From assembly GCA_006503475.1 (NCBI GenBank), contig RSEH01000025.1:152243-216242 (forward strand): 64,000 nucleotides of DNA, in the 5' to 3' direction. Below are positions 7,030-41,872 of this stretch, piece by piece. The notes under the pieces were generated by a model. That model saw only the letters and a program-made list of their open reading frames with translations, was not told the DNA's origin and made no database searches. This DNA is from Stentor roeselii (Eukaryota; Ciliophora; Heterotrichea; Heterotrichida; Stentoridae). Position 1 is the stretch's first letter. Each line of letters starts with the position of its first letter. A program made the translations under genes and the position numbers.

Positions 7030-7162
7030 TAGATTTATTTAGAAGTTGACTAAAGTTAATTATTTATCTTCTGTAGGATACTTTGATATCATTTTTTATG
7101 GATATTTGAATATCTTGAGATTTATTAAAATCTTAATTTCTAGATATCGGTTTTAAACGAAC

Positions 7163-9166: not shown

Positions 9167-9201
9167 ACCTAATCACCATAAATCCACCTAAATTACTTTA
9201 A

Positions 9202-9804: not shown

Positions 9805-10243
9805 TTTTATTAGGGTGATCAAGGGTTTGGATTTGGAATTACTTTGGATCGGAGGTGGGTGGGATTTATGGTAGCTGTGAAGGAGCTTGGAGAGGTACTT
9901 TTAAGAGGATTAATTTTTTAGTTATGAAATGTTAGAATTGTGAGGTAAGTATTTAATAATTATGTAGATATAGTATTTGATATGTTAAGAACTGATATAA
10001 TATTTTGATTTGAACTTTGGGTATTAATTGTAAAGAATCATTATAATCGTATCGAACCTAAAAAAGATATTGAATAGTTACAATCCTACCATAATCAAAA
10101 ACTAAAAAAAATCCTACAAACTCATGAAAAACAATCCAAAAATCGCTTTTCATAAAAATCCTACTCAATTAAATTAATAAAAAACCCTTTATCTTCAAAC
10201 TCAGCCTTTTGCAATAAAACCTTTATTCAATTCCAAATATTAA
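9805..10243. promoter_or_regulatory. Divergent intergenic region
   Basis: 439 bp between a minus-strand start (9804) and a plus-strand start (10244). The left part is G-rich and the right part C/A-rich on the plus strand, so both genes are preceded by C/A-rich sense sequence. No open frame or RNA gene was recognised. It presumably contains both promoters. Confidence 0.5.
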
Positions 10244-11431: not shown

Positions 11432-11613
11432 ATTGTAATTTAGAATTTAAAGAATTAGAAGTTTGTGGATTACTTTAATTATTGCAAGTATTAAAAGTGA
11501 TCCTTTTAATTATTCATATTTTTATCTTTAATAATAATCTTGATGTTCATGATATTAAATCATCTAATGAAAGGAGTAGATAATTAAACCATTTCCCAAA
11601 AAATTAATAAAAA

Positions 11614-14181
11614 CTATTCTAAACTTTTCTTTAAAGCTTTAATTTGAATGAAAAGTCCATGAAAGATATGACGACCATTCAAAACCTTGTTCAAGCCCTC
11701 TACTTTTTCCCAAAAAATCTCATCAATTTTATCGTTTTTCTTCACAAGAGCAAGTAAAGTACACAACAAATTTTTAACAATACAATTCTTAACCTTCAGC
11801 TTGACATCACTTTTTTCAACTTTCCTAGCACACTTCAGAACTTTCATCAAAAAACCATGACTAGTCCCTTTCCAAGCCTTCGCTAAAACTTTCATCACTT
11901 CAGAAGCCTGTATCTGGGTATTAGGATTTCTTCCACTGACCACATATTCTAATATTTTTTCAAAAATTTCTAAATTTTCCAAGTTTTTCGTTAAAATTTC
12001 AAGTAAAACCTCGATTTTAAGACTATTACTGTGTTTTTCAAAAAATTTCGCAACTAAATCCTTTAAAATTTTTTCAAATTCCTGTTGGTCAAGATTTTGA
12101 AGGATTTTTAAGAGACTTGCCATGTTTTTAGCAAGAATTCCAGAAAGATTTTTATCATTAGTAGCTGATTTAAAGCAAAACAACAGTAAATCTTTAATTT
12201 GATCTTTATGGCTTATCTGGACTTCCAGTTCTTTTTTATGAATTTTCTGTAAAATCGCTGAAATTCGATTGACAAGGTTTCTGTTTTGCTTTACTTTACT
12301 TGCAGATCTCAGAGCAAGCAGCAGACTGGTGTAAACTTTCAGTTTGTGATCAATATTTTTTGACTTTTTTATCACGATTTCTAAAAACTCCGAAGATCTT
12401 GTCAAAAAAGAGTCACGAACGAGTTTTTCTTGAAGTTTTGAGTTGTTTTGTTCGTTTAATAAGTTATTTTCTTGACTTTCTTCTTGATTTTCTTCTGGTT
12501 TTTCCTCGATTTCTATTGAAAACTGCCCAGTTTCCATGATTTTGCAGAGCTGAGATAGAAAATCTTCTGAAATTTCATTCACGAAGTCTTTAAACACTTT
12601 ACTAACAGCGAACCGCATGTACCCCACTGGTTTAGCAAGAGAAGAAAGCAGAAAAATCATAAGTTCATCTAAATTTTTCGCTTTTCCATTGACAATCTTC
12701 TTTAACACCCTGAGAAAATCATTGAAATCTGCTGAATTTCCATATAAAATCCCTTCAATCGCCAACATTTTCAAAACTTTTACCAAATTTTCCATTTGAG
12801 TCGATGTGACGATTGCAAGGTCTCCCGCTTGTCGTTTTCCTGAATGGTTCTGAGAAGCAAGAATTTCGAAATTTTCAGCTTCTTTCAACTTTTCTAGAAC
12901 TGAACCTGCCACTTCTGAGTCTTGACGGAAAAACTTTAAAATCATGTCGGCTAAGCTGAAGTCGTTTGCGAGGTTTAAAACTTTTATTTTCGCTGCTTCT
13001 GAGGAAGAGTCTTGGTTTAGGCTGAACCTTAAAAGCTTTTTAATGCCGAGTTTCTGTAGTTCAGGAGTTTTACATATCAAGTAAATGACATTTACTGCGA
13101 AATTCGCTTTTTTTCCGGTTTGGAATTTGAAAACTTCTTGAATTAGCCATTTTTTCGCACTTTTATCTAACTTTTCGATGATTTTTTCGAAACAGGACTT
13201 GAAAAAATCAAGGACTTTTAAAGATTCAACCATTTGTAGCAATACGGTCATTAAGTTGACTTTATGTTTGTATTTTTCAATGAAGTCTAAAAATATTGTT
13301 TTTGCTTTTGAAGCGATTTCGTGTTCTCTCATCTTTTTAACGAATAAATTATCCTGCCAGACGTTCCAAAAGCCCGGAGTTATCACCTGGCTTAAGTCAG
13401 CACCTTGCCGGTGAAACTCCAGGAAAAGCAAAAAGCTGAGATGAACTCTTTTATCTCTTTTTTTGTCTTCGATATTTACATCTTTTTCTACAAAGACTTC
13501 CCAAAGTTGACTTTCCTTTCCGGTGGATATTGAGGATGAGACTAGTAGTTTCCAGATCTGGTGAAGTCTTGGCATTACTTTGCATGAACCTTTGAAGATC
13601 AGCTGCTTGTGACGACCTGCTAGGTTTAGCACGCCTTCTGGTTTCATCGACGAGTAGTTAATCATCAACAAGTTCAAATCTTGCTCAGCTCCTCCAAGTT
13701 TTGGAAGCCTTTTTCTCTCAGGGTCCGATGCGATTCCAACAGCGACAAGTTCTTTAAGACTTGATTTTTGTTTAAAGATCTCAACAATTTTCTCAGACAA
13801 GGTTTGTGGAGGTCTTTTCTCAGCTCTTATCAGCGAAACATAGATCAAAACTTCAGCTGTCATCACTTGGAACGGACTGACTCCAGAATGGTCCAGATTT
13901 TGGAAGTAAGAAGAGATATGTTCGAGTTTTAACTGGAATTCTCGAAAAATCATCGTCAAACCCATGGAAAACCCGATTTTCGCTAGTTTTGAGCCAGTCA
14001 AGCCCTTTAAAAGACGGTCTAGAGTGTATTTCAGGGAATTTGAAAGGTTTCCCAGAACTGTACTCACTGAAGATAAGTCAGTTTTCAGTGTTTGGCTCAG
14101 TGAGGATACTGCTGGTCTAATCATGTCTTCCTGCCCGGAAGCTAGATCAGAAAAGATGATTAGGAAACCTTTGGACTCCAT
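11614..14181 (-). CDS. Pol5/MYBBP1A-like nucleolar protein (855 aa)
   Basis: A long alpha-helical, HEAT-like protein. The N-terminal block with YTLDRLLKGLTGSKLAKIGF and the later NLAGRHKQLIFKGS resemble the conserved start of the DNA polymerase phi (Pol5 / Myb-binding protein 1A) family, which despite its name works in the nucleolus in rRNA synthesis. It is shorter than human MYBBP1A or yeast Pol5, which is common in protists. An acidic low-complexity stretch (E/N/Q rich) lies near residues 555-575, where the family has its acidic insert. The start is the ATG at 14181, only 34 bp after the stop of the palmitoyltransferase gene, so its promoter must be tiny or lie inside the upstream gene. Confidence 0.65.
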   Translation of the reverse strand: MESKGFLIIFSDLASGQEDMIRPAVSSLSQTLKTDLSSVSTVLGNLSNSLKYTLDRLLKGLTGSKLAKIGFSMGLTMIFREFQLKLEHISSYFQNLDHSGVSPFQVMTAEVLIYVSLIRAEKRPPQTLSEKIVEIFKQKSSLKELVAVGIASDPERKRLPKLGGAEQDLNLLMINYSSMKPEGVLNLAGRHKQLIFKGSCKVMPRLHQIWKLLVSSSISTGKESQLWEVFVEKDVNIEDKKRDKRVHLSFLLFLEFHRQGADLSQVITPGFWNVWQDNLFVKKMREHEIASKAKTIFLDFIEKYKHKVNLMTVLLQMVESLKVLDFFKSCFEKIIEKLDKSAKKWLIQEVFKFQTGKKANFAVNVIYLICKTPELQKLGIKKLLRFSLNQDSSSEAAKIKVLNLANDFSLADMILKFFRQDSEVAGSVLEKLKEAENFEILASQNHSGKRQAGDLAIVTSTQMENLVKVLKMLAIEGILYGNSADFNDFLRVLKKIVNGKAKNLDELMIFLLSSLAKPVGYMRFAVSKVFKDFVNEISEDFLSQLCKIMETGQFSIEIEEKPEENQEESQENNLLNEQNNSKLQEKLVRDSFLTRSSEFLEIVIKKSKNIDHKLKVYTSLLLALRSASKVKQNRNLVNRISAILQKIHKKELEVQISHKDQIKDLLLFCFKSATNDKNLSGILAKNMASLLKILQNLDQQEFEKILKDLVAKFFEKHSNSLKIEVLLEILTKNLENLEIFEKILEYVVSGRNPNTQIQASEVMKVLAKAWKGTSHGFLMKVLKCARKVEKSDVKLKVKNCIVKNLLCTLLALVKKNDKIDEIFWEKVEGLNKVLNGRHIFHGLFIQIKALKKSLE

Positions 14182-14215
14182 TAACTCTATTACTAACAGC
14201 TTTGCATTCTTACTA

Positions 14216-14797
14216 TTAGCTATAGGCGATCTTTAGTCTAAAAAACAAGGTGGTAATTGAATAAATCAGCAGGAGAAATGTGCAGATTATCAGCCCGTAA
14301 AAGTATTTTATTGTTTTTCGTCCTACGCATTTACCGAGAAGGCAGTAGTGGTCGTCGTACTCCTCAATGCAAACTCTGCACTTCTTACAATGCTCAGTAT
14401 AATCTTCCTTCAGCAAGTTACAGTCACTACATATCTTATCAAGTGCATAATTAAAGTCACTACTCGATTTCATCTGAAGTGTCGGAATAACCATCCCAGG
14501 GTTACTCAAAGAGCAAACAAGATAAAAGAAGAACTCCGCAAAAAACACTAAAACTCCAACAACTAAGTTAATTTTCGATACTTTCCGACTAACATCAATG
14601 ACAAAAACCAAAAAAACAATGAATAAAAAAGCGAAAGTGCATGCAAAGGCCGGCCCTAACTATTTCTTACAATGAGGTCCAAGTGTGATGCGAGGACTAC
14701 CTTCGCTATCAATTAAAAAACAATGAACTTTTCCAATCTTTTGATATCTGGTGTTAGGAGAGGCGATTGCTGAGATGTCAAAAGTATTTCGTTGCAT
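14216..14797 (-). CDS. DHYC-type protein S-palmitoyltransferase, one 15-nt intron (188 aa)
   Basis: Exon 1 starts at the ATG at 14797 and ends in GPHW across the intron at 14656-14670; an open frame without an ATG (from 14611) is thus extended by about 60 residues. The product has ITLGPHW before TM1 (about 44-64), as in many zDHHC enzymes, TM2 (about 70-91), then the Cys-rich domain: CxxC (118/121), HCxxCxxC (131-137) and the catalytic D144-H-Y-C147. DHYC in place of DHHC is a known functional variant (yeast Akr1, Pfa5). One helix (about 160-180) follows and then the stop at 188, so the usual fourth helix and TTxE region are missing. It lies 43 bp after the giant USP gene and 34 bp before the Pol5-like gene, same strand. 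Confidence 0.85.
14656..14670 (-). other. 15-nt spliceosomal intron
   Basis: The sense strand reads GTAAGAAATAGTTAG, with an in-frame TAG. Splicing creates the conserved GPHW motif across the junction and supplies the only ATG start for the DHYC enzyme. It has A at position 10 and TAG at the acceptor. Confidence 0.92.
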
Positions 14798-14840
14798 TTT
14801 TTTGTTATAAGACCATCTTTATCGATTATATTGATGTTAA

Positions 14841-17800
14841 TTATAAAGAATCAGTCTCGCTTTCGTCTGTATTGTAAAAGTCGTTGTTGTTATAAGGCTG
14901 TTCTGGCTCTAGTTCTTCTATCTTGAATATTTGTCTTAGTTTTGAGTAACACTTGATGACTTCTTCGCTTAAATGACGAGTGTTGTCTAGATAGTCCCAG
15001 TAATAAACGTTGTTGTCTGATTTTGATGGATTTGAAAGAACTTCTTTGAAGATTCTTTCGTTCTCTGTTGTTATTAGAGAAAATTCTTCGTATTTTAAAA
15101 GGTCGCTCCACCAGACTAACACTGCGTTGAAGAAATGAAGAGGACGGCTTCGGAGCCAGTGGTCGAGGAATGTGTTTTCGGATTCGCTGTTTTTGTAGAC
15201 TGGAAGGGTAACCAATAGTTTCGCTCTTTCATATTTCAAGGAATCTTTGATTGTTAAAAGGTGAAAACCCACAAAGAGTAAGCTATTGAATCTATTTTGC
15301 TCGTATTTCACATCAAAAATACTAGAAACAAACTTCCATAATGCTATCCGACTTGCTGATAGATTTTCCCATAAAAGATGAGTTAAGATGTGAATAGAGT
15401 CATAATTTTTCCCTGCAAGGACTAGCTTTTCAATGGTCTTACAGGACAAAAGATCGTTTTCTTCTGGGTCTTCGAATTTGAATGATGAAAGACTTGCGTA
15501 GAAAGGCAGGTTGTTAGAGGAAATCATTGATCTGGTCTTGGAACGTCTTGTTAGGTTTGCTGCTGTTTCAATTAGCGTGAGTTTATCAGAGTAAGAATTT
15601 ACCTGCACGCCAGCAATATCTGCCGTAAACTGACTAATCAAATTAAAAGTCACAGAAAAATGAGAAAAAAGTTTAAAAATCCTCTCCTTCTGTGATAAAA
15701 TCGTGATTACTGCAAAGACCTCACTAGATGCCTTCATATTATTCATAGCTTTCCTAACCAAACCAGAGAAAAACATCTTAAAAAACCTTGCAGTAGCCGA
15801 AAAATACTCATCTTCCAAATCAAAACTCGACCCAAACAACTCCAACTCTTCCCCACAAGGTTCAAAAGAGTTCTCAATAACCAAAACCTTGATTTTTTCA
15901 ATTAAATACTCTTCTTCATCAACAGCAGCCTGACTAATAACCTGCACTAAAAACGTTCTAAACTCATTTTTCACCTCTTCTCTCGAAAAAATCAAAACTT
16001 CTGCTAAAATTCCGAAATTTTCAATAAAAAACTGAAGAATCCAAACAGAAAGTCCATTATTTCCTTTAAACCATCCATTCAGCTTCGAAAGCCAAGAAAT
16101 GAAATTCCCTGATTGTCTAGCTCGAAGAAGAGCTTCAAACATGTAAATCGTTGCGATTTTTACTAAAACTTCAGAAAATTCTCGATTTTCATTCATGTCT
16201 GCCCTGTGGGCAGACACTTGCAAGACGATCTCGAAGACTTCAGGGCGAGCTTCAAGTTCAGTCCAAGAGTTTCCAGTGATTTGTTGGCCATTTTGCATTA
16301 ATAGTCCAAGTTTCCATCTTTTATGCAAGTCTTGGGTGAGACTGAGTTCTTTTTTCCATTGAAAATAGCCTTCAAGTTGAGAACAAGCAAGAAAATCTTT
16401 CAAGAAATCTGAATAACTGGAACTGAAAAAGAACTTATCTCTTAAAAACTCTTTATTTTCTTTTCTGATCTTTGAACGAATTTTATTGACAGGGTTGATG
16501 AAAAGTCCCTGTGGTTCTTCTTTATCTTGAGAAAAATCATTGATTTGGGTGGATCTCTGGTATATTAAAAGATAAGCATTTCTTGTTTTAGGATAAGAAA
16601 CTTCATCAAAATTCCAGTTTTGAAGGTTTTCACTTCCAAAACACTCTTCTTTTAAATGACTAACGTCGAAGTACTCGACATGTTTATCGTCAAACTTGAA
16701 CCAGGAGCCTCGGTCTCGGTCTTTGATGATTGAAAAATAATGTCCAACGTCTGCACTGCCGGAATGGACGAGAACTCCAACAAGGTCATAAAGATAATAA
16801 GAGTCTTCTGAATGAGAACAGTCACTCCAGGTTTTAAAGTCGATACTCGTGGGGAATTCACAGAAATCGTTTATTTTAGTTCTTTGCATTGTGTTGTAGT
16901 TGAACTCGAAACGCTTCAAGTGGATTATCACGGTGTTTGAAAGGTCTGATATCAGGCAACGCTTCTCTGCTGGGATCTTTTTGTCGTATTGGTCGCAGTA
17001 GTACTGGTTGTCTCCGTCTAGAATGTCTTCTTTTACGAATAGGTCTAGGGCTTCTGAGAGGGTCTTTTTGTTTATGATGTCTAGGGAAATGCGGTAGAAG
17101 GTCTCTTCTCTTAAGCTTTTGTAAGGAAAATCTGCCTCGAGTGACTTGATTTCGTGAACGAATTTACCTCCTACGCAGACTTGAAATAATGTTCTGTGTC
17201 TGGTAGGTTTCAAAATCTCTTCAATTTTATCATGCAACAAATTAAAAAACTCATCCACATCCTGCTGTTGTTTAACATTCAAAGCAAGTCCATCATAATC
17301 CTTAAAAGCCTTGCAAAACCCAGTCGGTTCAAAGAACTGTTTATCACTTTCCTCTAAATTCCAAAAGACCACTTTCAACTGAAACAGTAAATTATCCCCT
17401 AAGTCTTCTTCCAAGTCCTCAACAAATATCTCAGCTTCCTGAATTCCTTTTCGAAAGCTTTGAATCATGAAAAGCTGTTGAAGCAGCGAGTTTAAATAAC
17501 AAGTCGCTCCAAAATTGCGAAGTCCAACAAAGCCTGTCGAGCTTTTTCCTGTTATTTCTGAGTCGAAGTTTGAATTCAAGAAGTCTAACTCGCTCCGGCC
17601 TGGCAGATGCGAAAGACTCCTGTAGTCGGTCAGGATACTTCTGGGAAGGTGGTAAGCTGATAAACCTTCTAGAAGAGAGTTGAAGTTTGGACGAGAGTAT
17701 CTGGCTAGGTTTAATAATAATGCAAATGCTGACCTTCTTGAGGACTCTTGGGTGAACTTTGCTGGGTGGTTTTCTCCGTCAATAAGAGAAGAATAAACAA

Positions 17801-20800
17801 CCTTTATCAAGCCCGTACAATCAGGAGGTGAAAAATCAAGTAAAGTACTAGCAAGATTCAAATACCCCTTAAGTAAACTTTCCTCCTTATCCCCAAAAGC
17901 TCCAGGATCCTTCAACAGCCTTTCAATAGTTTCTAAACTTTTATCCAAAAGTATCTTCTCGGAGTATCCTTCCTTAATAAGCTGAACAAGTACTTCAAAG
18001 TACTCATCACAATGATTATGTGAGTTTTCAGGCAATTTCTGAAGAAGCACCTTTAAGAAGTAATTAACAGGAGCTTCTAAGTTTCCAGGTGGACTGGGAA
18101 TCGATTCAACAATAGAGAGGATAGTGAACTTGATCGACTCTCTTACTTTACTTTTTTCAGAGTCCAACAAATAATTGACAAGACTGTTAAAAGAGTCTCT
18201 CTTATAAATCTCGCTGAGTAGAAATGGATGACTGATGATCAAAGGTACCATGAAGTCCAGTGCACGTTCTATTAAAGAAGTTCCATCAAGTTCTTTACTT
18301 GCACAAGTTTCTATTATTTCTAGCATCTTTCCTGTCAGTTCTAAGAAATCAATACTTTTGACTTGCTCTGATGTACTTTGTAGCTGGTCGATTATAAAAA
18401 CTTTTAAAGTCTTGATAAGATTTTCAAGACATACTAAAAATGATTTGCTTTTGTCGTCAAATCTTTGAGATGTCATCACGATTTTGTAGAGATGATCTAT
18501 ACCTCCTGATAGGTAAAACTTTTCTTTCCAGTTTTCGGAAAGTTCTGAGGTGAGGATATCTTTGATAATATTCAGGCCATATAACAATTTATGATGACAA
18601 ACAGAACTAAGAATACTTTTCCAACCTTCATCAAGTTTATGAATTTTCTCAAGAATCAAAGGATTCACAGGACATTTCGCTAAAAGTTTCCAGACCCTAT
18701 TGCTAATATTTTCATTTCCCAAATCAAAAAGTGTGAAAAGTAAGTTAAAGTAACTTTCATTACTGCTTAAAATTTCACTGACACTCTTACACCCACCATC
18801 CCCTTTATTTTTCTCTACTTTTTCCTGAATATCATTCAAAACCTCCTCATTAACAAGCATATTAACAGCATCTTCCAATGAATTATTCGAGTTTTCCAAA
18901 GCAGTAATTAAAACATCTTCACAAAATCCCTGAAAAATCGATTTCAAAGTTTCTAAATTTTCCAAAAAATTTTCTTCAGCTTTTTCCAGTTCTTTGCTTA
19001 TTTGAAAAACCGAAACAAACGACTCCGGCCCTAATTCAAGGTCTTTAACAGTTTTTCTTTCAAGTCTAAAGCTGATTTTTTTATTTCCCAGGAATAAAAC
19101 AATTTCAGAGGTGGTTAAAATTGGACTGATTTGGGAAACGATGAGAGTTTTAAGGGAACTCACAAGGGTCTTACTGAGAAGGCTTAGTTTGAAGGACTTG
19201 GGATAAGTGTTAGGGACTTGGTTTTTTATCAGGATTTCTGTTGTTTCTGATTTGTTTTCGAATTCTTGCAAGAATTCTGTTAGGATTATCACGCAGCGAA
19301 GGATTTGGGAATAACTGTCTTGGTCTAGATGGATTTGAACTCGCTCTACTCCTTCTGTTATGAACTCTCTGATGTTTATTAAAAAGTCGTCGATTTTTTG
19401 ATCTCTTGGATGGGATAGGGTTTTGTATAGGGTGTGGATGAAACGAGAAGCGATACGGAATACGCTTTTTTGCTTTGATTTTAGGATTACTTCCCATAAG
19501 TATTGCATTCCTAGAAGGCTGCTTTCTTTTGCTTCGATATGTCCGTGGAAGTCACTAACAATCAACCCATGCTGTTTATTCAAGTTAATAAAAAGTTTTT
19601 CAAAGCACTTAAAACCTTCATAGCTCATAGACCTTGCATCAAGTTTCAAAAACAAGTCAGTAAAAACAAAATGAGTAATTTCCTCATTAACCAAAGCGCC
19701 TCCCATGAACCAAACATCAATACATCCAGAAAGCCACCCAAAGAAAATCTCAAATTCTTCCTCACAAACAGCATTTAAGACCATAGCTTCCCACAAGACC
19801 TGCAAATGTTTAATCTGAAAGGTTTCCGAACTAGATTTAAACAAAAACTTGATAAAATTGAGTCTAAACTTCAATTCTTCAAAGAAACTCATATCAGAGT
19901 CCTTAGAAACCTTAAGTGCCCTGAAGACTTCCGCATGTTTTTTTCCTCTTTCCTCACTTTCATGTGAATCATCATCACTAGAGCAGGTAAAGCAGACATC
20001 TTCTCGTTCATCATCAAGTTTTTCTCCAGTTAAAACAAGCTGAGCAAGTTCAACAGCTTCAGTCTTAAACAATAAAAAACTAGTGAAAAGTTCAGATAAT
20101 AAATGATATTCTCTGTCTAATGTTTTTACTATAGTTGCCTTTGACTCGTCGTAGTTAGACCGAATGTCGCTATAGGAAAGAACTAGTTCTTCTAGTAATT
20201 TGCAAGAAGTGACTATTGAAGAGTTTCTTTTTAAATTTTCAATGCATTTTGATAGAAACTTATGTCGATCACCTCGACAGTTGTAAGTTGATAGAAGGTC
20301 TTTTAAGATAAGATAAGCTTGTTTTGAGATGCTTGAAGCGACTTCTGTTGTGTCTTGAACCAGTTTCCATAAAAAGTCAAGGACTTCAGTGTAAGTGAAT
20401 GAATCTTGACGGATCATTGTAAAGTTTTCTTTTAACTCTTCTGGTTCTTTCCAACAACCTTCGCCTTTCTCGTCGTTTGACCTTGATGAACTTTTTGAAC
20501 TGTTTAATGCGAGATTTTTTATTAGTGATAAGGTGGATGAATCGATTTCGTTTAAGTCAAGACTCACGATTTTGCTGAATAGAAACTGAAGGTCGGATAG
20601 TTTAAAGGTTTCGCATAGATCAGTGAAGAGGTTTATTAAAGCAACTCGGTCGGTTTCATGTTTTACTACTGCGCAGTCCCATAGTTTGCCGATGTTGTTT
20701 TTGTCGAACCTGTTATGAATATACAATAACTTGACCAGTTCTTTCGACCTTTTCACAAGTTCCGGATGAGTACTACTTCCAAATATAACATCCAACAAAT

Positions 20801-21737
20801 CATGTCTCTCAACCCACTCAATTAAAACTCCAGCCTCAAGCTGTTTATTTTCACTTCGAAAACCAAGATCTTGAACATCGCCAATCTTCGAATTAATATC
20901 AACCAATCCAGCAATTCTCTTTTCAAGATACTTCGAAGTTAAAAAGCGATAAGCCAAGCTAAGTTCCGCAGCAGTCATCACCTTAAAACACTTACCTTTG
21001 CTATACAAAACATGCAAAAAGTTATCAAAATAATTCAAAAACTTCTTAATTTCCCCTTTTTGCATATTTTTCATCTCATCATCTGAAAAGTTCATAATTT
21101 TCATTAAAATCTTTTCCTTCAAGTCCTTACAGACCCTTCTCCAAAAATCCCGTTCAGAGATTTTCTCGAAACTCGCGAAAAACGCGAGGATTTTCACTAA
21201 AAACTTATAAGGAATGACTTCAGTTGACAAAAGAACAAGTTTCGAAAAGCCGAGTTCTTGAATAAACAAGTTAATATTGACAGTGAATAAGAAATTTGGT
21301 ATACTTGAAATGATTTTAATCGTCGGCTCGTTTGACTGTGACTCTCTATACTGGGGCAATGAGGAAATGTAAGAGATTTGAACTGTTTCTGGTATTTGTG
21401 TAGAGCGACTTGAGTAGTAAGGGTTGTCAAAGTTCAAAATTCGCAGAAGGATTTCAAGAAGTTCAAGAGAGTCTTTCTTCAGTCGCGGGAGGATGTATTT
21501 TAAAAGGGTTTGAAGGAAATCGTTCACTTTTAAATGGACCTCGCATGGGAAGTGGTTGTAATCACGACAGAGAAGAGCTTCGCTTAGGAAGGTTAAACAC
21601 TTGTGGAATGATGGGCTTGGACTTGAGAAGAACGGCTGGATTGAATCTAGGAATGGACTTGGGTCTGTTGAATCTAAATGAAGAGTACCTTGTTTGAGAA
21701 GGCGCTCGTAATCGGAAAGGAGAGGGTCTTCTACCAT
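14841..21737 (-). CDS. Giant ubiquitin-specific protease, USP9X/24/34-like (2298 aa)
   Basis: A very large USP. The peptidase domain lies at about 1400-1760: Cys box FGATCYLNSLLQQLF with Cys1413, the QQQDVDEFF motif, a CDxY...KxCxI zinc-ribbon-like segment, and the His box DVGHYFSIIKD with His1666 followed by WFKFDDKHVEYF. The flanks (1-1380 and 1780-2298) are helical armadillo-like repeats as in USP9X, USP24 and USP34, which edit ubiquitin on trafficking and signalling proteins. A UBA-like helix pair (SLEDAVNMLV) occurs near residue 950. All catalytic residues are present. The start is the ATG at 21737 and the stop TAA. The gene shows a striking alternation of G/T-rich and C/A-rich blocks (see findings). 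Confidence 0.9.
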   Translation of the reverse strand: MVEDPLLSDYERLLKQGTLHLDSTDPSPFLDSIQPFFSSPSPSFHKCLTFLSEALLCRDYNHFPCEVHLKVNDFLQTLLKYILPRLKKDSLELLEILLRILNFDNPYYSSRSTQIPETVQISYISSLPQYRESQSNEPTIKIISSIPNFLFTVNINLFIQELGFSKLVLLSTEVIPYKFLVKILAFFASFEKISERDFWRRVCKDLKEKILMKIMNFSDDEMKNMQKGEIKKFLNYFDNFLHVLYSKGKCFKVMTAAELSLAYRFLTSKYLEKRIAGLVDINSKIGDVQDLGFRSENKQLEAGVLIEWVERHDLLDVIFGSSTHPELVKRSKELVKLLYIHNRFDKNNIGKLWDCAVVKHETDRVALINLFTDLCETFKLSDLQFLFSKIVSLDLNEIDSSTLSLIKNLALNSSKSSSRSNDEKGEGCWKEPEELKENFTMIRQDSFTYTEVLDFLWKLVQDTTEVASSISKQAYLILKDLLSTYNCRGDRHKFLSKCIENLKRNSSIVTSCKLLEELVLSYSDIRSNYDESKATIVKTLDREYHLLSELFTSFLLFKTEAVELAQLVLTGEKLDDEREDVCFTCSSDDDSHESEERGKKHAEVFRALKVSKDSDMSFFEELKFRLNFIKFLFKSSSETFQIKHLQVLWEAMVLNAVCEEEFEIFFGWLSGCIDVWFMGGALVNEEITHFVFTDLFLKLDARSMSYEGFKCFEKLFINLNKQHGLIVSDFHGHIEAKESSLLGMQYLWEVILKSKQKSVFRIASRFIHTLYKTLSHPRDQKIDDFLINIREFITEGVERVQIHLDQDSYSQILRCVIILTEFLQEFENKSETTEILIKNQVPNTYPKSFKLSLLSKTLVSSLKTLIVSQISPILTTSEIVLFLGNKKISFRLERKTVKDLELGPESFVSVFQISKELEKAEENFLENLETLKSIFQGFCEDVLITALENSNNSLEDAVNMLVNEEVLNDIQEKVEKNKGDGGCKSVSEILSSNESYFNLLFTLFDLGNENISNRVWKLLAKCPVNPLILEKIHKLDEGWKSILSSVCHHKLLYGLNIIKDILTSELSENWKEKFYLSGGIDHLYKIVMTSQRFDDKSKSFLVCLENLIKTLKVFIIDQLQSTSEQVKSIDFLELTGKMLEIIETCASKELDGTSLIERALDFMVPLIISHPFLLSEIYKRDSFNSLVNYLLDSEKSKVRESIKFTILSIVESIPSPPGNLEAPVNYFLKVLLQKLPENSHNHCDEYFEVLVQLIKEGYSEKILLDKSLETIERLLKDPGAFGDKEESLLKGYLNLASTLLDFSPPDCTGLIKVVYSSLIDGENHPAKFTQESSRRSAFALLLNLARYSRPNFNSLLEGLSAYHLPRSILTDYRSLSHLPGRSELDFLNSNFDSEITGKSSTGFVGLRNFGATCYLNSLLQQLFMIQSFRKGIQEAEIFVEDLEEDLGDNLLFQLKVVFWNLEESDKQFFEPTGFCKAFKDYDGLALNVKQQQDVDEFFNLLHDKIEEILKPTRHRTLFQVCVGGKFVHEIKSLEADFPYKSLREETFYRISLDIINKKTLSEALDLFVKEDILDGDNQYYCDQYDKKIPAEKRCLISDLSNTVIIHLKRFEFNYNTMQRTKINDFCEFPTSIDFKTWSDCSHSEDSYYLYDLVGVLVHSGSADVGHYFSIIKDRDRGSWFKFDDKHVEYFDVSHLKEECFGSENLQNWNFDEVSYPKTRNAYLLIYQRSTQINDFSQDKEEPQGLFINPVNKIRSKIRKENKEFLRDKFFFSSSYSDFLKDFLACSQLEGYFQWKKELSLTQDLHKRWKLGLLMQNGQQITGNSWTELEARPEVFEIVLQVSAHRADMNENREFSEVLVKIATIYMFEALLRARQSGNFISWLSKLNGWFKGNNGLSVWILQFFIENFGILAEVLIFSREEVKNEFRTFLVQVISQAAVDEEEYLIEKIKVLVIENSFEPCGEELELFGSSFDLEDEYFSATARFFKMFFSGLVRKAMNNMKASSEVFAVITILSQKERIFKLFSHFSVTFNLISQFTADIAGVQVNSYSDKLTLIETAANLTRRSKTRSMISSNNLPFYASLSSFKFEDPEENDLLSCKTIEKLVLAGKNYDSIHILTHLLWENLSASRIALWKFVSSIFDVKYEQNRFNSLLFVGFHLLTIKDSLKYERAKLLVTLPVYKNSESENTFLDHWLRSRPLHFFNAVLVWWSDLLKYEEFSLITTENERIFKEVLSNPSKSDNNVYYWDYLDNTRHLSEEVIKCYSKLRQIFKIEELEPEQPYNNNDFYNTDESETDSL

Positions 21738-21975
21738 TTATGGGATAGATGAGAATAGTGATTTTTTTAGAGTACTTGTCATTAGATTCTGTTGAAATTA
21801 TTGGTAGTGTTATCTAGACTTGTTTAATATATTTAGATGATAGGTAGTTACTTCACTGTGATGAAGTAGAGATAAAGGTTTTTTAAGTTAATTATTCTTT
21901 AGTGGATCATTTTGAAGTTCTTTTCGTGAAGATTTTCATATGGTTAATTTAAAGAACTATTCCATTTCCTTATAA
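21738..21975. other. Intergenic, 5' flank of giant USP gene
   Basis: 238 bp between minus-strand genes. Nothing beyond AT-rich sequence and the expected USP promoter is visible. Confidence 0.4.
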
Positions 21976-23025
21976 TCAAAATTTACTTGTGCTAAGTGAC
22001 ACCCCAGTCGATGTGTTCCCGATGCCAGCAAACCTCAAATCAAGTTTTTTATGAAGCAGACTCACCTGAGACCTGTTAACAAAACACTTGAAGTAAACCT
22101 TCATAATTTTTTTCATCCTTTCCATCAATTCCTTCACCCCGTCATTAGAAACCTCAGAAATCCCATCAAAAACTTGCATCAACTTCTCAGAAAACTCTGA
22201 AACTTTAGATTCCTTTCCTAAGTCTTGTTTAAATCCTGTTAAAATTTTATCAAGTTCTTCAACTTTTGAATTCAAAAACTCGAAATTTTTCCCGTTTTCC
22301 GCGAAAGAAACTTCAAAATCATTGAGAAAATTTCCAGTTTTTAAGTGATTTTCAATTAATTTTTCAGAAGTGCCTTGAAAACTTGGAGTGGTGACCATTA
22401 ACATATCAGCAGACCATCCATTTCTAACATCAGGTTCAAAATTCTTGATTTTTTCGTGAATTTCTTTAAAGTCATTCGGAATTTTCACTGAAATTTCTAA
22501 AGTCTCTGAAAAATTTACAAGAAAATCTTGTTTTCCGATGGTCACTTGAATTTTTTCTGAATTATGTGGAATTGGTTTGATTTCCATTGAAAAGTTGAGA
22601 GTTTTGGATGAATTTTTGCATTCTTTGCAGGAAAAATCAAGAAAAGTAGGTTTTTTACATTCAGAGCAAGTTAAATTTTCTTGAATTTCCAGTATTTTTT
22701 TCTTACCTGAGCGAAAAGTGACTCCTTTTCTTTGTTTTCCTGATGAGGGTCGTTTGCTTTTATGAATATTTCCCTCGGAGTTTCTTTTTTCACTTGAAAA
22801 AGTACTGTGAATGATCCGTTCGATGTGTTTCTGGATGATTGAACTGGACTTTTCCTTTTGAAAAGGGGCGGAAGGGCTGTGATGAGTGATTTTTGACCTT
22901 AACTTAGAGGCACTGGATGCTTTTCGTTTGTCTTTAGAGGAAGGAATCATGATTTCAAGAGCGTCGACGGGGTCTTTCAAGAAACTGGTGCGGCTAACTT
23001 TCGCTTGATTATTAAGGGAGTTCAT
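21976..23025 (-). CDS. Unknown protein with CxxC zinc-binding pair (349 aa)
   Basis: Unrecognised. Residues 1-110 are basic and Ser/Lys-rich, probably disordered. Around 118-136 two CxxC pairs (LTCSECKK and SCKECKN) could bind one zinc. A beta-rich segment (about 140-195) and a helical, coiled-coil-like C-terminal third follow. There are no signal peptide or membrane segments. Its ATG (23025) is only 17 bp downstream of the CFAP20 stop codon on the same strand, so transcription may be coupled to CFAP20 or start within it. Co-location with a ciliary gene does not by itself prove a ciliary role. Confidence 0.65.
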   Translation of the reverse strand: MNSLNNQAKVSRTSFLKDPVDALEIMIPSSKDKRKASSASKLRSKITHHSPSAPFQKEKSSSIIQKHIERIIHSTFSSEKRNSEGNIHKSKRPSSGKQRKGVTFRSGKKKILEIQENLTCSECKKPTFLDFSCKECKNSSKTLNFSMEIKPIPHNSEKIQVTIGKQDFLVNFSETLEISVKIPNDFKEIHEKIKNFEPDVRNGWSADMLMVTTPSFQGTSEKLIENHLKTGNFLNDFEVSFAENGKNFEFLNSKVEELDKILTGFKQDLGKESKVSEFSEKLMQVFDGISEVSNDGVKELMERMKKIMKVYFKCFVNRSQVSLLHKKLDLRFAGIGNTSTGVSLSTSKF

Positions 23026-23042
23026 ATTAATAAGCCATTTAA

Positions 23043-23615
23043 TTACTGTTTTTGCAAGGGTAAAAACAACTTAAACTCTGGAGGCAGTTCTTCTTCAGAG
23101 TACAGCCGATCACTAAAATAAATCCTTCTCAATCTGCAGTTAGCATGAAGTTGCACACGCAGAGTTTCAATATAATTCGTTCCATACGCCCTTCGTGTGA
23201 AGTCACTCAGATTGAACTGAATCTGGTTCCACCCTTCATCCAGCCTCATGGGCATCGTGCAAATGAAAGGCTTGACTCTGGTGGTGCTTTGATAGTTCGA
23301 AGCTCTGAACCGCCTTCGAATATTTTTATCATCTAAAACTTGCACTTCAAATGTGAAGTACTTCTTCAGATTCTTTATTATCATCACTAAAAACGGCAGC
23401 TTTATGCCAAGAGTGGCATTTGCTTCAGCTGGACATGTAATGAAAGTCGTTGAGACGTTCGTTCCCATTATTTCCAGAACTGAACTCTGGATGTCTGTGT
23501 CAGTTATTCGCTTGATGTGCCCGTTTCGCACTGATTTGTCCCAGATCTGCAGAGGCTTCGCACCGATACTGTAGAGGATTGATAAAAAACCTGATTGGAA
23601 TGTATTTTTGAACAT
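23043..23615 (-). CDS. CFAP20: Cilia- and flagella-associated protein 20 (CFAP20/BUG22)
   Basis: 190 aa, colinear with CFAP20 from animals, algae and other ciliates (about 193 aa), without insertions. Conserved blocks include the N-terminus [74 protein letters not shown] and [21 protein letters not shown]20 is an inner-junction protein of axonemal doublets and is found at basal bodies; loss alters ciliary beat and tubulin modification. The start is the ATG at 23615, matching the family start exactly. The stop is TAA. Confidence 0.98.
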
Positions 23616-24043
23616 GTATAATGGAATTTGAGTTATGAATTTGGAGGATTATCATGGAAGGTCACTTCTGGATTTGGATGTTTAGGTGTTGGAAGGAATT
23701 TTTTGGGAATGGGTTGGAATGGGTTTGAGTGAGTGGATGGATTTTTAAAGTTTTGAAGAGAAATTAAGAGTTTTATGATTTTGAGAGTGGAAAGTTGAGG
23801 GTTGGATGAGTAGGGTTTTTTATGGTTTTGGAAAAGGATTTTTTGTTTTATAGTCGATGATTGATGAGCTCAACTTAAAATAAAAGTTTTAGGTGTTATT
23901 CTATAATTTTTTTGTTTCAATCACTTGAGAAACGAAATAGTGAAAGACTTGAAAATATTTAATTTTTTGACCTGGTTTATTACTCTCTAAAACTTCATTA
24001 ATTTTTCCTTTACTGGGAAATTTAAGCCTTTATAAAACCATTG
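23616..24043. promoter_or_regulatory. Divergent intergenic region upstream of CFAP20
   Basis: 428 bp between CFAP20 (minus) and the gene starting at 24044 (plus). The plus strand of 23640-23840 is strongly G/T-rich (GGGTTGGAATGGG and similar), meaning C/A-rich on the CFAP20 sense strand. The part nearest 24044 is plain AT-rich. No open frame was recognised. Confidence 0.5.
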
Positions 24044-25015
24044 ATGAAAATAGCCAATCATAATGTTGTCATCCTCAAGAGATTCAATAAAAAACCTCTA
24101 GGGCTGAAAACAGTTTCAAAAAATATCGATAAAAGTTCTCAGGACTTGAAAAATACGAAGATTTTTGATGAGCATTTCCAGATCGGATCTGCCCTTCCAA
24201 AGTCAACTCTAACCTTTTTTAATGCTCCAAAGGCGATAAGGCCACCCTCTGAAATATTTGCTCAGCCTATTTTAAGAGCTGCTTTTGAAATTGATATGCA
24301 GACTGCTTCGATTCCATGGGAGGATTATCAAGAAACTTTGAAAATTTCAAAGACAAATCTTACGAAAGTTAAAGAAATTTATCGGCCATTAAGGAAAAAT
24401 CTCAGTCAAAAAATCCTCCATACTAAAAGCGAAGACGGTTTAGACGATTTTCTGAAGTCCCACCGAAGTTCAATCCGAGAAGAAATAAAGCAAATATTCG
24501 AAAGAGAAATTTCCAAGCAAGAATCCCCTGCAAAGGTGAAAAATTCCCGAAAGTCTTTTTCAGCCTCATTTTACCGTCCAAAGACTCACGCATCAAGAAA
24601 TCTAAACCATTCATCGCTGAAGCCAGTAGAGAGCATAACCCAATCCCTTTCAATAAAAAAATTCGAGAACATCAGAACACAAGAGTTAAATTCAAGACCA
24701 ATCACATCAGAAAAGTCGACAATTTCAACAAACAAGCAAAAACTCTGTGATTCAAGCGACCTAAACCTAAACTCATCAAATATCGCAGTCCGTATAAAAA
24801 AGCGCAACATGATAATAACTGAATCAGCCTCATCTAAAGCGATCCATTCAAATCCCCAAAGAGAATTCTTATTACCAGCGCCATTCGCAGGTAAATTCAA
24901 AGGTCGAAAGATTCAAAGCAAGTTCGGTGCAATGTTCGTTCCATTATCATTAAACCCAATAACCCCCAACCACTTTTTAAACAGTTCAAATGAAGACCAA
25001 ATGATTTTCAACTAA
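24044..25015 (+). CDS. Unknown basic, Ser/Lys-rich protein (323 aa)
   Basis: Unrecognised. It is hydrophilic with many Ser, Lys, Asn and Arg and no membrane segment; a short helical part lies around 75-155 and the rest is probably disordered. The last 50 residues are more hydrophobic and Pro-rich (LLPAPFAG, FVPLSLNPITP). The start is the ATG at 24044; a TTG immediately before it is ignored. Its stop codon lies 6 bp from that of the converging peptidase gene, so the two 3' UTRs must overlap or be almost absent. Confidence 0.6.
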   Translation: MKIANHNVVILKRFNKKPLGLKTVSKNIDKSSQDLKNTKIFDEHFQIGSALPKSTLTFFNAPKAIRPPSEIFAQPILRAAFEIDMQTASIPWEDYQETLKISKTNLTKVKEIYRPLRKNLSQKILHTKSEDGLDDFLKSHRSSIREEIKQIFEREISKQESPAKVKNSRKSFSASFYRPKTHASRNLNHSSLKPVESITQSLSIKKFENIRTQELNSRPITSEKSTISTNKQKLCDSSDLNLNSSNIAVRIKKRNMIITESASSKAIHSNPQREFLLPAPFAGKFKGRKIQSKFGAMFVPLSLNPITPNHFLNSSNEDQMIFN

Positions 25016-25021
25016 TTAACT

Positions 25022-27028
25022 TTAACTATTCTCAAACTTTTCCATGATCCAAGCCGTGGTATTGACGATTAAGTCGAAACTTGCAGCTTTTCCAAGAACT
25101 CCATGACCTTCATCATGATACCAAAGCATTTGGCAGTCTTTTTGATTAGCCTTCAAAACTCTAAACATTTCTTGACTTGTAAAGGCTGGAACTCTTAAAT
25201 CGCCGCTTCCTGCGCAGATGAGTACTGGGCAGGTAATAAGTCCAGCTCTTGACACTGGAGAAGCCGCGTACATCGCCCGGTACTGCTCTGGAGACGGGGG
25301 AAGCGCCAAGTCCGAGGCGCAGACCTCGGCGAGTCCCCAGTCGTTGATGTCAGTCGCCAGGTGCATTGAAGCGACGTCGAGGGCGCCGTTGATGGTCACA
25401 CATCCTGAGAGTTCCATTCTTGAGGCAAGGTGAGTGCTCAGGAAGCCACCGTGAGAACCTCCGAAAGTAATTACTTTTGAACAACCTGTTAAGGACTTTG
25501 CTTGGTTTATTGATTTTATACAGTCTTCTACGTCTAGATCTCCGATCTTTCCCAGGAGGGTTGTGAGGAGATTGCTTCCGAAACCGGTTGAACCTGAATA
25601 GTTTATTAGTAAAATACTCATGTCTTGTAAGGATCGTAGAGATGTTGAGAGAGCGTAACCTGAGAATGAGATTGAATGAGGACCTCCGTGGAGAACTGCT
25701 AAAAGGTTCTTGGTACCGGGCTTGTGGTAGAGAATACTTTTTAGGTCTGATGATTCACTTTTGATTAATGTTGTTTCGATCTGGTCGAGTCTTGCTCTGA
25801 TTTCATTTTCTTTCGGATTAAGGTCCTGATGCAAACAGCTCTCAACCAAAACAGGGGACAAATTGTTAGAAATATTCAAAAGATAAACCTGATCAGGAGT
25901 CTTGAAGTTGCTTGCCTTGACCATAACAGTTCCAGCAAAGACATCTAAAATAGTACTTAAATAAGGTTTCTCCAGAGGCAGCACTAGTTCTTGAACATCA
26001 CCTGAAAGATTAACTGAGAAGAGACATTCACTTGCATCATGATTAGAGGAAAAAACGATTGTTTCGTTATCTATCCAATTATAAGTGGATAGTCCTTCAT
26101 GAAAACCATAAATTCCGTTGAATTTTGAATTAAATTCAAAAACTCTAGGAACGAGTTCTCTTGTCTCGCCAGTGTTCAGGTCTCGAATCACTAATGAAAC
26201 GCACATGCAGTGAGATATGCTTCCGATAGGGACTCCGTAAAATGTTAAAAACCTGCCATCTGGACTGAATTTTGGGAATAAAGTTCCCATATAACTGCTT
26301 CCTCCCTCAACTTCTTCGATACCCTCATCCTCGACCCTTCCTTTAAACATTTTAGTCTTCCTATTAATCATCGCCGCCAAGCCCAATTTAAACCCAAATT
26401 TCTCAAACCCTACAAAATAAACCTCATTAGTCCCAGGTCTAAAAACCGGTTGAGCAGGCCAAACATTTTCAGGTGTTTTAAAAAGACAAACATCATTACT
26501 TTCCACTTTATAAACAAAAAGTTGCGGTTCCACGACATGTTTAAGTCCTTCACCAAAGTTTTCCTTATACCAATTCTGATTCCCCGAGTTTTCCTCACCA
26601 CTCCAAAAATTCGAGCTTTTTTTCTGAATAGCTTCAGCAGAATAAACCACAAACTTATCGTCATGGTTCCAGGCGGCTTTTCCGAAAGGCGCAGCCAAAG
26701 ACAAGACCGAATGAATTTTTTTCAGGTCTTTGACTTGCAAAAGACGAGATGAAGACCAAAGTTCCCAGGACAAGTCTTCCTTTTTTTCACCTTCTTGAAG
26801 GGCAAGGCGAAGGGATCGAGAAGTGCTGAATGATGAACTTTTGCATGATGTTAAAGCGAAGGATGTGTTTAGGAATTTCAAGTAGTCTCGAGACTTGGAC
26901 TGAACTGGCTCACTTACTGAAAGAGATAAAATACCTGAGTTTGAGGAGGTTAGGATACCGGAGTCTACTGAACTTGACATACGTGCAAGGGATTCTAGAA
27001 GTTTTGCTAGTTCTTGAGACTTAGACAT
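25022..27028 (-). CDS. Acylaminoacyl-peptidase-like serine peptidase (668 aa)
   Basis: An S9 family (prolyl oligopeptidase clan) enzyme. The N-terminal part (about 50-420) is beta-propeller-like, with signatures such as PKFSPDGRFL. The C-terminal alpha/beta hydrolase has HGGPH (oxyanion region), nucleophile Ser525 in GGSHGGF, Asp610 in GSGDLRVP and His642 in DEGHG: an intact triad. GGSHGGF followed by THL is the form seen in acylaminoacyl peptidases (APEH), which remove N-acylated residues from blocked peptides in the cytosol; no signal peptide is present. A paralogue is at 29837-31840 on the same strand. The start is the ATG at 27028 and the stop TAA. Confidence 0.85.
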   Translation of the reverse strand: MSKSQELAKLLESLARMSSSVDSGILTSSNSGILSLSVSEPVQSKSRDYLKFLNTSFALTSCKSSSFSTSRSLRLALQEGEKKEDLSWELWSSSRLLQVKDLKKIHSVLSLAAPFGKAAWNHDDKFVVYSAEAIQKKSSNFWSGEENSGNQNWYKENFGEGLKHVVEPQLFVYKVESNDVCLFKTPENVWPAQPVFRPGTNEVYFVGFEKFGFKLGLAAMINRKTKMFKGRVEDEGIEEVEGGSSYMGTLFPKFSPDGRFLTFYGVPIGSISHCMCVSLVIRDLNTGETRELVPRVFEFNSKFNGIYGFHEGLSTYNWIDNETIVFSSNHDASECLFSVNLSGDVQELVLPLEKPYLSTILDVFAGTVMVKASNFKTPDQVYLLNISNNLSPVLVESCLHQDLNPKENEIRARLDQIETTLIKSESSDLKSILYHKPGTKNLLAVLHGGPHSISFSGYALSTSLRSLQDMSILLINYSGSTGFGSNLLTTLLGKIGDLDVEDCIKSINQAKSLTGCSKVITFGGSHGGFLSTHLASRMELSGCVTINGALDVASMHLATDINDWGLAEVCASDLALPPSPEQYRAMYAASPVSRAGLITCPVLICAGSGDLRVPAFTSQEMFRVLKANQKDCQMLWYHDEGHGVLGKAASFDLIVNTTAWIMEKFENS

Positions 27029-31840: not shown

Positions 31841-31899
31841 TTATCTCTAAAAATTCTCAGAAAACTTACGAAAATTGTCTTAAAACTATTCTACTCTGA

Positions 31900-33922: not shown

Positions 33923-33959
33923 GTTAATGAAGAATTAAGATAGTAAATATTATTGAATT

Positions 33960-34853: not shown

Positions 34854-34888
34854 CTTTTCATACTTGTTAAACTTGGATAATTAATTTG

Positions 34889-41859: not shown

Positions 41860-41872
41860 TATTAGAGGATTA

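What the first reader, a model, noticed from the sequence alone, without database searches (positions are those of the whole stretch)
14841..21737. Quasi-periodic alternation of strand composition inside one 6.9-kb gene
On the plus strand this single ORF switches repeatedly between G/T-rich and C/A-rich blocks. Counting G and C in 60-base lines: 17041-17100 G21/C6, 17341-17400 G3/C17, 18841-18900 G5/C15, 19381-19440 G20/C4, 19681-19740 G5/C23. Approximate C/A blocks are 15.60-16.08, 17.22-17.46, 17.78-18.00, 18.60-19.02, 19.56-20.06 and 20.72-21.16 kb, with G/T blocks between. Successive blocks of the same sign lie roughly 1 kb apart from 17 kb to the gene start, and some switches (about 19.55 and 20.72 kb) are abrupt. 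Gene orientation and reading frame are constant, so transcription alone cannot explain the flips. The pattern looks like strand-biased transitions (A to G and C to T on one strand) whose sign alternates. Closely spaced replication start and stop points or another periodic single-strand exposure could produce it (inference). I know of no description of this.
Basis: partly seen in the sequence, partly recalled or inferred. Interest (0 to 1): 0.8.

Follow-up and report, generated by a model that had tools for sequence, protein, structure and literature searches.

The report
Sawtooth strand-bias scars across ciliate genome
All along this ciliate's DNA the two strands trade places in base make-up about once per kilobase, sharply at one kind of point and gradually in between, as if lasting break-and-repair sites had left mutation scars in genes and proteins alike.

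Summary
In the 2,298-codon gene (14841-21737, minus; a USP9X/USP24-like deubiquitinase) strand composition flips repeatedly, also at third codon positions after amino-acid control. It is not confined to this gene: 71 long ORFs in 302 kb of the same genome show it (autocorrelation z=63, negative lobe at ~0.5 kb z=-27); E. coli does not.

It is not a true 1-kb oscillation but a sawtooth. On either strand, read 5' to 3', composition climbs slowly to G/T-rich, drops within ~70 bp to C/A-rich and recovers over ~500 bp (skewness 0.62, 95% 0.43-0.78). Drops lie ~0.8-1.4 kb apart, irregularly, mostly inside ORFs but over-represented outside them.

Germline segment inversion predicts no sawtooth and is rejected; transcription cannot flip sign inside one gene. 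Best explanation (~50%): recurrent germline double-strand-break sites whose resected 3' strands lose C and A, the polarity reported beside human meiotic hotspots. Rivals: replication origins, IES-linked breaks. My literature searches found no description of such a genome-wide pattern.

The parts
14841..21737 (-). 2,298-codon ORF, UBP24/USP9X-type deubiquitinase (UCH domain at residues 1404-1726), the gene of the finding
   Evidence: UCH E 7.4e-45; ARM_UBP24_USP9X-Y E 9.5e-27
15600..15620 (.). sharp K-to-M edge (G/T-rich left, C/A-rich right on + strand)
   Evidence: score 77; third-position keto +0.17 left, -0.66 right
17192..17212 (.). sharp K-to-M edge
   Evidence: score 103; +0.57 / -0.38
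17770..17790 (.). sharp K-to-M edge
   Evidence: score 68; +0.42 / -0.47
18555..18575 (.). sharp K-to-M edge
   Evidence: score 68; +0.29 / -0.37
19543..19563 (.). sharp K-to-M edge
   Evidence: score 103; +0.57 / -0.47
20698..20718 (.). sharp K-to-M edge
   Evidence: score 101; +0.54 / -0.47
21940..21960 (.). sharp K-to-M edge in the gap upstream of the gene (between ORFs 14841-21737 and 21976-23025)
   Evidence: score 75
15197..15217 (.). weaker K-to-M edge candidate
   Evidence: score 37
16098..16098 (.). gradual M-to-K turn; others in the gene near 16850, 17531, 18207, 19108, 20113, 21358
   Evidence: scores 49-89; averaged shape of such turns
1..64000 (.). whole window: 51 K-to-M edges with score above 40, so the gene is a sample of a wider pattern
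   Evidence: autocorrelation at 6-20 codons with z above 2 in 22 of 23 ORFs of 250 codons or more

Best explanation
What is shown: the heterotrich genome carries many point-like, strand-symmetric sources of asymmetric composition. At each point the + strand is on average G/T-rich for ~500 bp on the left and C/A-rich for ~500 bp on the right, strongest near the point and fading outward. Gradual M-to-K turns lie where the arms of neighbouring points meet. What is inferred: the points are preferred, long-lived double-strand-break sites in the germline (most simply Spo11 meiotic breaks). 5' resection leaves the + strand single-stranded on the left and the - strand on the right for about half a kilobase. 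C and A on the exposed strand mutate (C to T/G, A to G) during exposure or gap filling. Recurrent over evolution, this shifts silent sites strongly and drags amino acids along. Ciliate germlines have exceptionally low mutation rates per division, so break-linked mutations could dominate their spectrum (inference).
For: Sawtooth asymmetry on amino-acid-controlled third positions: skewness 0.62 at 50 codons (95% 0.43-0.78), positive in 47 of 71 genes, sign-flip p below 5e-5; positive at all seven widths tested, 0.21-0.62, p<=0.02. E. coli 0.00. Cross-validated profile (edges found with even codons, measured with odd): K-to-M passes from about +0.2 to -0.2 within ~70 bp, localisation error included, and decays to zero at about +/-500 bp on both sides; M-to-K turns pass gradually through zero. 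At fourfold sites C and A fall and G and T rise on the left, mirrored on the right, with G+C flat, at the 100 best-scoring K-to-M edges of the list (283 kb). Same polarity as human DSB flanks: ssDNA left of the break on the forward strand, C>N and A>N there, G>N and T>N on the other side (PMC7615360, passages, section 4). Edges are over-represented near non-ORF DNA (53 of 170, 0.31 against 0.17 expected; M-to-K 12 of 150, 0.08 against 0.16). A step shows at tandem gaps (t=3.3, n=37), borderline at divergent (t=2.0, n=16), not at convergent gaps (t=0.3, n=28), as breaks in promoter chromatin would give. A Spo11/TopVI-A-type domain (TP6A_N, E 3.9e-18) and two Rad51-family genes are in the genome. 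Where they differ from a homolog, window amino acids follow the local silent-site sign (one-sided p<=0.018 in 18 of 18 homologs that I compared); the homologs' residues do not (p<0.05 in 1 of 18).
Against: No germline breaks, meiosis or micronuclear DNA were observed; the mechanism is inferred from shape and sign alone. No GC rise at fourfold sites near edges, so no sign of GC-biased conversion. No motif at edges, but power was low. The fitted spacing implies tens of thousands of sites, denser than hotspots I recall in yeast. The sawtooth is statistical: 24 of 71 genes have a non-positive third moment, and at moderate scores M-to-K turns are as numerous as K-to-M edges (284 K-to-M against 309 M-to-K above score 20; 110 against 80 above 60). 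The few strongest M-to-K turns (z>=5) are also often near non-ORF DNA (6 of 20, 0.30 against 0.17). Simulated edges with linear taper of 700 bp give more skewness (0.74-1.34) and box arms less (0.38-0.49) than the observed 0.62, and none gives the observed dip at 1.26-1.44 kb.
Confidence: 0.5

Rival explanations
1. The sharp edges are very closely spaced replication initiation sites; the leading strand is A/C-rich as in yeasts, and the gradual turns are termination zones.
For: [quoted passage not shown] Sharp at origins and gradual between is the human origin pattern (PMC3459929 passage). Human origins carry local mutational footprints (PMC9645720, passages). Strand-symmetric arms.
Against: Replication GC-skew jumps are ~9% in S. 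cerevisiae and return to average over ~20 kb. Here the fourfold GC-skew jump at selected edges is about 0.9-1.1 (from frequencies; inflated by selection) and decays in 0.5 kb. Efficient origins every ~1 kb would be needed. Sign is opposite to human origins.
Confidence: 0.15
2. The edges mark germline-limited inserts (IESs): each insert site is repeatedly cut, or is a break or pause site in the germline, and scars its macronuclear flanks.
For: Density: fitted spacing 0.8-1.0 kb would give roughly 44,000-56,000 sites in 44.4 Mb; Blepharisma has about forty thousand IESs, ~70% intragenic with slight intragenic depletion, in a 41-Mb somatic genome (PMC9942856 and PMC9942806, passages). Edges lie mostly inside ORFs and are over-represented outside them.
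Against: No PiggyBac DDE_Tnp_1_7 match in this genome, though that search rang in no control genome. TA is not enriched at coding edges (40.4 against 41.8 expected); at all 130 edges TA 90.7 against 81.7 and TATA 6.0 against 5.0, neither notable. Programmed excision is somatic and not inherited, so a germline leak must be assumed.
Confidence: 0.17
3. Germline scrambling: macronuclear segments lie in alternating orientation in the micronucleus and inherit its strand bias, so each flip is a segment junction.
For: Would give abrupt sign alternation inside one ORF; fairly regular blocks of ~550 bp roughly mimic the autocorrelation (misfit 0.105 against 0.058 for the best sawtooth).
Against: All five simulated inversion models give sawtooth skewness between -0.03 and 0.02, against 0.62 (0.43-0.78) observed. 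The cross-validated shapes of the two edge types differ.
Confidence: 0.03
4. Transcription-coupled mutation or selection within genes (as the 5'-C, 3'-G skew of fungi).
For: First 300 bp of ORFs are M-biased on the sense strand (-0.041, t=-2.9, n=79) and last 300 bp K-biased (+0.045, t=3.5, n=88), the same direction as in unicellular fungi (PMC3315797, passages).
Against: Sign flips repeatedly inside one ORF of constant direction. Phase-locking of the longer profile to gene starts or ends is not significant (p=0.83 and 0.25). R-loop exposure of the sense strand should make 5' ends K-rich, the opposite (inference).
Confidence: 0.05
5. Functional codon or protein patterning (domains, mRNA structure, translation).
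For: Positions 1 and 2 and amino acids also shift with the blocks.
Against: Amino-acid-controlled silent signal z=63 against 40 synonymous shuffles. 17 of 18 homologs, at 67% identity and below, show no significant sharing at residues that differ.
Confidence: 0.02

Closest known systems
Strand-asymmetric mutation beside human meiotic DSB hotspots (Hinch et al. 2023, PMC7615360)
   Same: Point source, opposite strands affected on the two sides, C and A mutated on the exposed strand, kilobase scale
   Different: There seen as rare variants near PRDM9 hotspots with ~2-kb flanks; here it has reshaped silent sites and amino acids, arms ~0.5 kb, a site per ~1 kb, and breaks are not shown
Replication-origin skew jumps / N-domains (Marsolier-Kergoat 2012, PMC3459929; Murat et al. 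2022, PMC9645720)
   Same: Sharp jump on one side, gradual return, strand-symmetric; polarity agrees with yeast leading strands
   Different: At selected edges the amplitude is ~10 times that of yeast and the length scale ~40 times shorter; opposite sign to human
Skew jumps at Candida albicans centromeres (as described in PMC3459929, section 16)
   Same: Very large (74%), short-range GC-skew jump judged unrelated to replication
   Different: At centromeres with ~3-kb arms; here in the regions sampled throughout, with ~0.5-kb arms
Opposite GC skew at 5' and 3' gene ends of unicellular fungi (PMC3315797)
   Same: C-biased 5' ends, G-biased 3' ends, also at fourfold sites and with amino-acid effects
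   Different: Here most edges lie inside ORFs and the pattern is not phased to gene ends
Blepharisma IES landscape (PMC9942856)
   Same: Similar number and density of sites, mostly intragenic, heterotrich ciliate
   Different: IESs are germline inserts; no insert or excision has been seen at these edges

Membership tests
Meiotic DSB-hotspot mutational asymmetry | Antisymmetric flanks about a point (strand-symmetric K|M step) | tested here: met
Meiotic DSB-hotspot mutational asymmetry | C and A lost on the strand left exposed by 5' resection (left, + strand) | tested here: met
   20-100 bp left A .21 C .08, right A .49 C .19; polarity
Meiotic DSB-hotspot mutational asymmetry | Arm length of resection scale (about 0.5-2 kb) | tested here: met
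   zero at about +/-500 bp
Meiotic DSB-hotspot mutational asymmetry | Preference for promoter or open chromatin (PRDM9-independent type) | tested here: inconclusive
   over-represented near non-ORF DNA and at tandem gaps, borderline at divergent gaps, absent at convergent gaps; most edges are intragenic
Meiotic DSB-hotspot mutational asymmetry | Locally raised GC from biased conversion | tested here: not met
   fourfold G+C flat, 0.27-0.35; not a universal feature, but membership is not claimed
Meiotic DSB-hotspot mutational asymmetry | Physical breaks at the sites in meiosis | not testable with these tools
   no germline or break data
Replication-origin skew domains | Sharp jump at origin, gradual return between | tested here: met
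Replication-origin skew domains | Return to average over half the inter-origin distance (many kb) and jump of order 10% | tested here: not met
Scrambled-germline (inverted MDS) footprint | Both edge types equally sharp | tested here: not met
IES-site footprint | Edges coincide with germline inserts | not testable with these tools
   no micronuclear sequence; TA not enriched at coding edges (low power)
Transcription-associated skew | Constant sign along one gene, or phase fixed by gene ends | tested here: not met

The most novel reading that the evidence does not exclude
The somatic sequence is a readable fossil map of tens of thousands of recurrent germline break sites, possibly the insertion sites of germline-limited DNA, about one per kilobase. 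Each site scars its flanks with a strand-polar mutation gradient strong enough to set codon usage and pull protein sequence. Break-associated mutation, not replication, would then be the main source of germline change in this ciliate.
Probability: 0.3. Interest if true: 0.9.

Novelty: new variant of a known kind. Interest (0 to 1): 0.72.

Why it matters
If right, the positions and polarity of germline breaks (or another single-strand-exposing event) can be read from one assembled somatic genome without meiotic material. It would test whether meiotic repair dominates mutation in lineages whose mutation rate per division is extremely low (7.61e-12 per site in the Tetrahymena germline; PMC5585995, passages). 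It also warns that codon usage and amino-acid composition in such genomes reflect local strand history: a source of bias for codon-adaptation, dN/dS and protein-composition studies.

Tried and rejected
Gene-phased oscillation: an averaged profile seemed to oscillate with ~1.1 kb from the start codon; a circular-shift test gave p=0.83 (starts, 43 genes) and 0.25 (stops, 52 genes), so I dropped it.

Strict periodicity: no 1-kb peak. Randomly or mildly regularly spaced point edges with ~0.5-0.7-kb arms give the main shape of the autocorrelation (best misfit 0.058) and of the spacing (observed CV 0.61; simulated 0.59-0.64 at shape 3 and mean 0.8-1.0 kb). At a stricter score CV is 0.45 (the finder itself forbids spacings under 350 bp). 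Mild regularity is possible.

Germline inversion (scrambled MDS): an early favourite, rejected by the sawtooth.

Motif at edges: k-mers near edges looked AT-rich, but that list mixes in non-ORF edges; with posterior-weighted positions nothing stands out for the number of words tested (78 coding and 130 total edges; best GATCA, z 2.8). A small TATA excess at 0-30 bp could not be checked at coding edges (count below its listing limit) and was 6.0 against 5.0 at all edges.

Protein-level test of the same sawtooth in 36 homologs: inconclusive (skewness P0001 0.15, homologs pooled -0.03, positive in 16 of 36).

Paralogs: 8 of 40 pairs share block sign at one-sided p<0.05, including the two closest (r=0.43, 0.63) and some distant ones, most others not (40 of the 269 pairs found, highest identity first). 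Pairs are not independent. This suggests turnover but is not decisive.

rRNA search for naming the organism: tool gave no answer; not repeated.

Full report
What and where. The window is the end of a 216,242-base contig of a 44.4-Mb, 522-contig genome. Many contigs carry CCCTAACA arrays (220 forward, 327 reverse matches to a three-unit probe; the places listed lie at contig starts, or at ends where I know the contig length), the telomere repeat of Blepharisma (PMC9942806, passage). The gene's nearest named protein relatives are Blepharisma stoltei (56% over the UCH region) and Stentor coeruleus (53%), with unnamed environmental sequences up to 78% (best 120 of 833 listed). The ORF uses 28 TGG and ends in TAA. 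I take it as a heterotrich macronuclear genome; the species is unknown. The gene is a UBP24/USP9X-type deubiquitinase.

Observation. All five quoted counts are exact and 200-bp keto variation lies far outside 500 synonymous shuffles (0.160 against a maximum of 0.092). At third positions GC and TA skew move largely together, GC skew from -0.70 to +0.80 per 50 codons. In the window 22 of 23 ORFs of 250 codons or more have third-position keto autocorrelation above synonymous shuffles (z above 2 at 6-20 codons; the exception is 34065-34853).

Genome-wide test. I read 302,306 bases in 30 stretches. The sample is not random: 26 stretches came as loci of UCH-domain or P0001 matches; the other four (104 kb of contig C170 with the window, 10 kb of its other end, 40 kb of C91, 19 kb of C59) were taken by position. 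In 71 ORFs of at least 400 codons, after subtracting each amino acid's mean, third-position keto autocorrelation is 0.063 at 33-90 bp (z=63 against 40 synonymous shuffles), crosses zero near 0.3 kb, is -0.029 at 453-510 bp (z=-27), near zero at 1 kb and slightly negative again (-0.010) at 1.26-1.44 kb. Leaving out the finding gene changes little. The same pipeline on 200 kb of E. coli K-12 (52 ORFs) gives values between -0.006 and 0.002 in the lag bins shown (no shuffle z computed there). In 243 kb at all positions, purine content and GC content decay without a comparable negative lobe.

Sawtooth. The third moment of the step between left and right means tests whether up and down switches differ in sharpness, and it is unchanged by reverse complement. 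At 50 codons skewness is 0.62 (95% 0.43-0.78), positive in 47 of 71 genes, sign-flip p below 5e-5; it is positive at all seven widths tested. The finding gene alone gives 1.09. E. coli gives 0.00. With edges located on even codons and measured on odd ones (161 K-to-M, 183 M-to-K), K-to-M passes from about +0.2 to -0.2 within ~70 bp and fades to zero at ~500 bp on both sides, while M-to-K passes gradually through zero over ~200 bp each way. Simulated point edges give the main shape of the autocorrelation and positive skewness; the observed 0.62 lies between box arms (0.38-0.49) and 700-bp linearly tapering arms (0.74-1.34), and no model gave the dip at 1.26-1.44 kb. Telegraph models of inverted segments give skewness -0.03 to 0.02. 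Edge numbers and spacing fit a mean of 0.8-1.0 kb with mild regularity; detected edges in the 104-kb contig stretch are 1.3 kb apart on average at the stricter score. The apparent 1-kb rhythm is therefore mainly a by-product of ~0.5-kb antisymmetric arms.

Spectrum. At the 100 best-scoring K-to-M edges of the list (made on 283 kb), fourfold bases 20-100 bp left are A .21 C .08 G .245 T .465 and 20-100 bp right A .49 C .19 G .08 T .24, against .355/.153/.150/.341 overall; G+C stays within 0.27-0.35. These edges were selected on the signal, so the amplitude is inflated; the unbiased third-position amplitude is the +/-0.2 to 0.3. Both C and A are lost on the left and both G and T on the right, so it is not cytosine deamination alone.

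Location. K-to-M edges (z>=3) are near non-ORF DNA in 53 of 170 cases (0.31 against 0.17 expected) and M-to-K in 12 of 150 (0.08 against 0.16); among the 20 strongest M-to-K turns it is 6 of 20, against the trend. A K-to-M step is seen across tandem gaps (n=37, t=3.3), borderline across divergent gaps (n=16, t=2.0), not across convergent gaps (n=28, t=0.3); an earlier run with a lower ORF limit and 19 kb less gave t=3.1 (n=35), 3.0 (n=11) and 0.3 (n=23). ORFs are mechanical, so short introns may split genes and blur these classes. Phase-locking to gene ends failed its test, although the first and last 300 bp differ on average. No motif was found.

Evolution. Where the window protein differs from a homolog, the window residue follows the local silent-site sign (r 0.05-0.12, one-sided p<=0.018 against all 18 homologs compared, which I chose from the 120 listed) and the homolog's does not (p<0.05 in 1 of 18). 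The pressure is lineage-specific and shapes protein. Paralog comparison is mixed (8 of 40 pairs share sign).

Mechanism. A two-sided point source with opposite strands affected, fading over half a kilobase, is the geometry of a double-strand break with 5' resection. The polarity agrees with that described at human meiotic hotspots: ssDNA left of the break on the forward strand, C>N and A>N on the forward strand, G>N and T>N on the other (PMC7615360, passages, section 4; that the first set lies left is my reading of text and figure legend). Spo11-like and Rad51-family genes exist here. Ciliate germlines have some of the lowest mutation rates per division recorded (PMC5585995, passages), which could let break-linked mutation dominate; this is inference. 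Replication origins are one rival: the sign fits yeast, but S. cerevisiae jumps are ~9% and fade over 20 kb (PMC3459929, section 16). The same paper used this logic to judge the 74%, 3-kb skew jump of Candida albicans centromeres as unrelated to replication. IES sites are another, because their density in Blepharisma is alike (PMC9942856, passages); no PiggyBac domain was found (whose control was silent).

Literature. Searches on skew in ciliates, DSB and strand asymmetry, replication skew, centromere skew, and hotspots with base composition (listings only, except the papers named) showed no report of a genome-wide kilobase-scale sawtooth. Subscription papers are mostly not held. The statistical pattern I regard as established for the 302 kb read; the break mechanism as about even odds.

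Noticed in passing
window 1-64000 and loci, ORF ends: Averaged over genes, the first 300 bp are C/A-biased and the last 300 bp G/T-biased on the sense strand, like the 5'/3' skew of unicellular fungi (PMC3315797, passages); promoter breaks might explain both.
   Followed up: partly
57122-63580 (-): 2,152-aa ORF (TTG as first listed start) with no Pfam match at E<=0.001; its strand-bias blocks are weaker over the 5' half.
   Followed up: no
25022-27028 and 29837-31840 (-): Two neighbouring ORFs 51% identical to each other; the first is a prolyl-oligopeptidase-family peptidase (Peptidase_S9). Their block signs do not match (r=-0.09).
   Followed up: partly
47808-47952: 69-bp tandem repeat, 2.1 copies, whose unit reads like MORN repeats (recalled motif, not tested); it lies in ORF 46985-48085.
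   Followed up: no
36765-36862: 12/24-bp tandem array (8.2 or 4.1 copies) inside the short ORF 36707-37189.
   Followed up: no
5398-7029 (-): A second, weaker UCH-domain gene in the same window (contig 158366-159259, E 1.3e-12); the genome has at least 92 UCH matches, many in open frames of 1,500-2,700 aa.
   Followed up: no
window end (64000 = contig end 216242): The contig ends without telomere repeats at this side, while other contigs carry terminal CCCTAACA arrays.
   Followed up: no
whole genome G000: No PiggyBac (DDE_Tnp_1_7) match, although Blepharisma, Condylostoma and, weakly, Stentor have homologs (PMC9942806, passages); the search had no ringing control.
   Followed up: no
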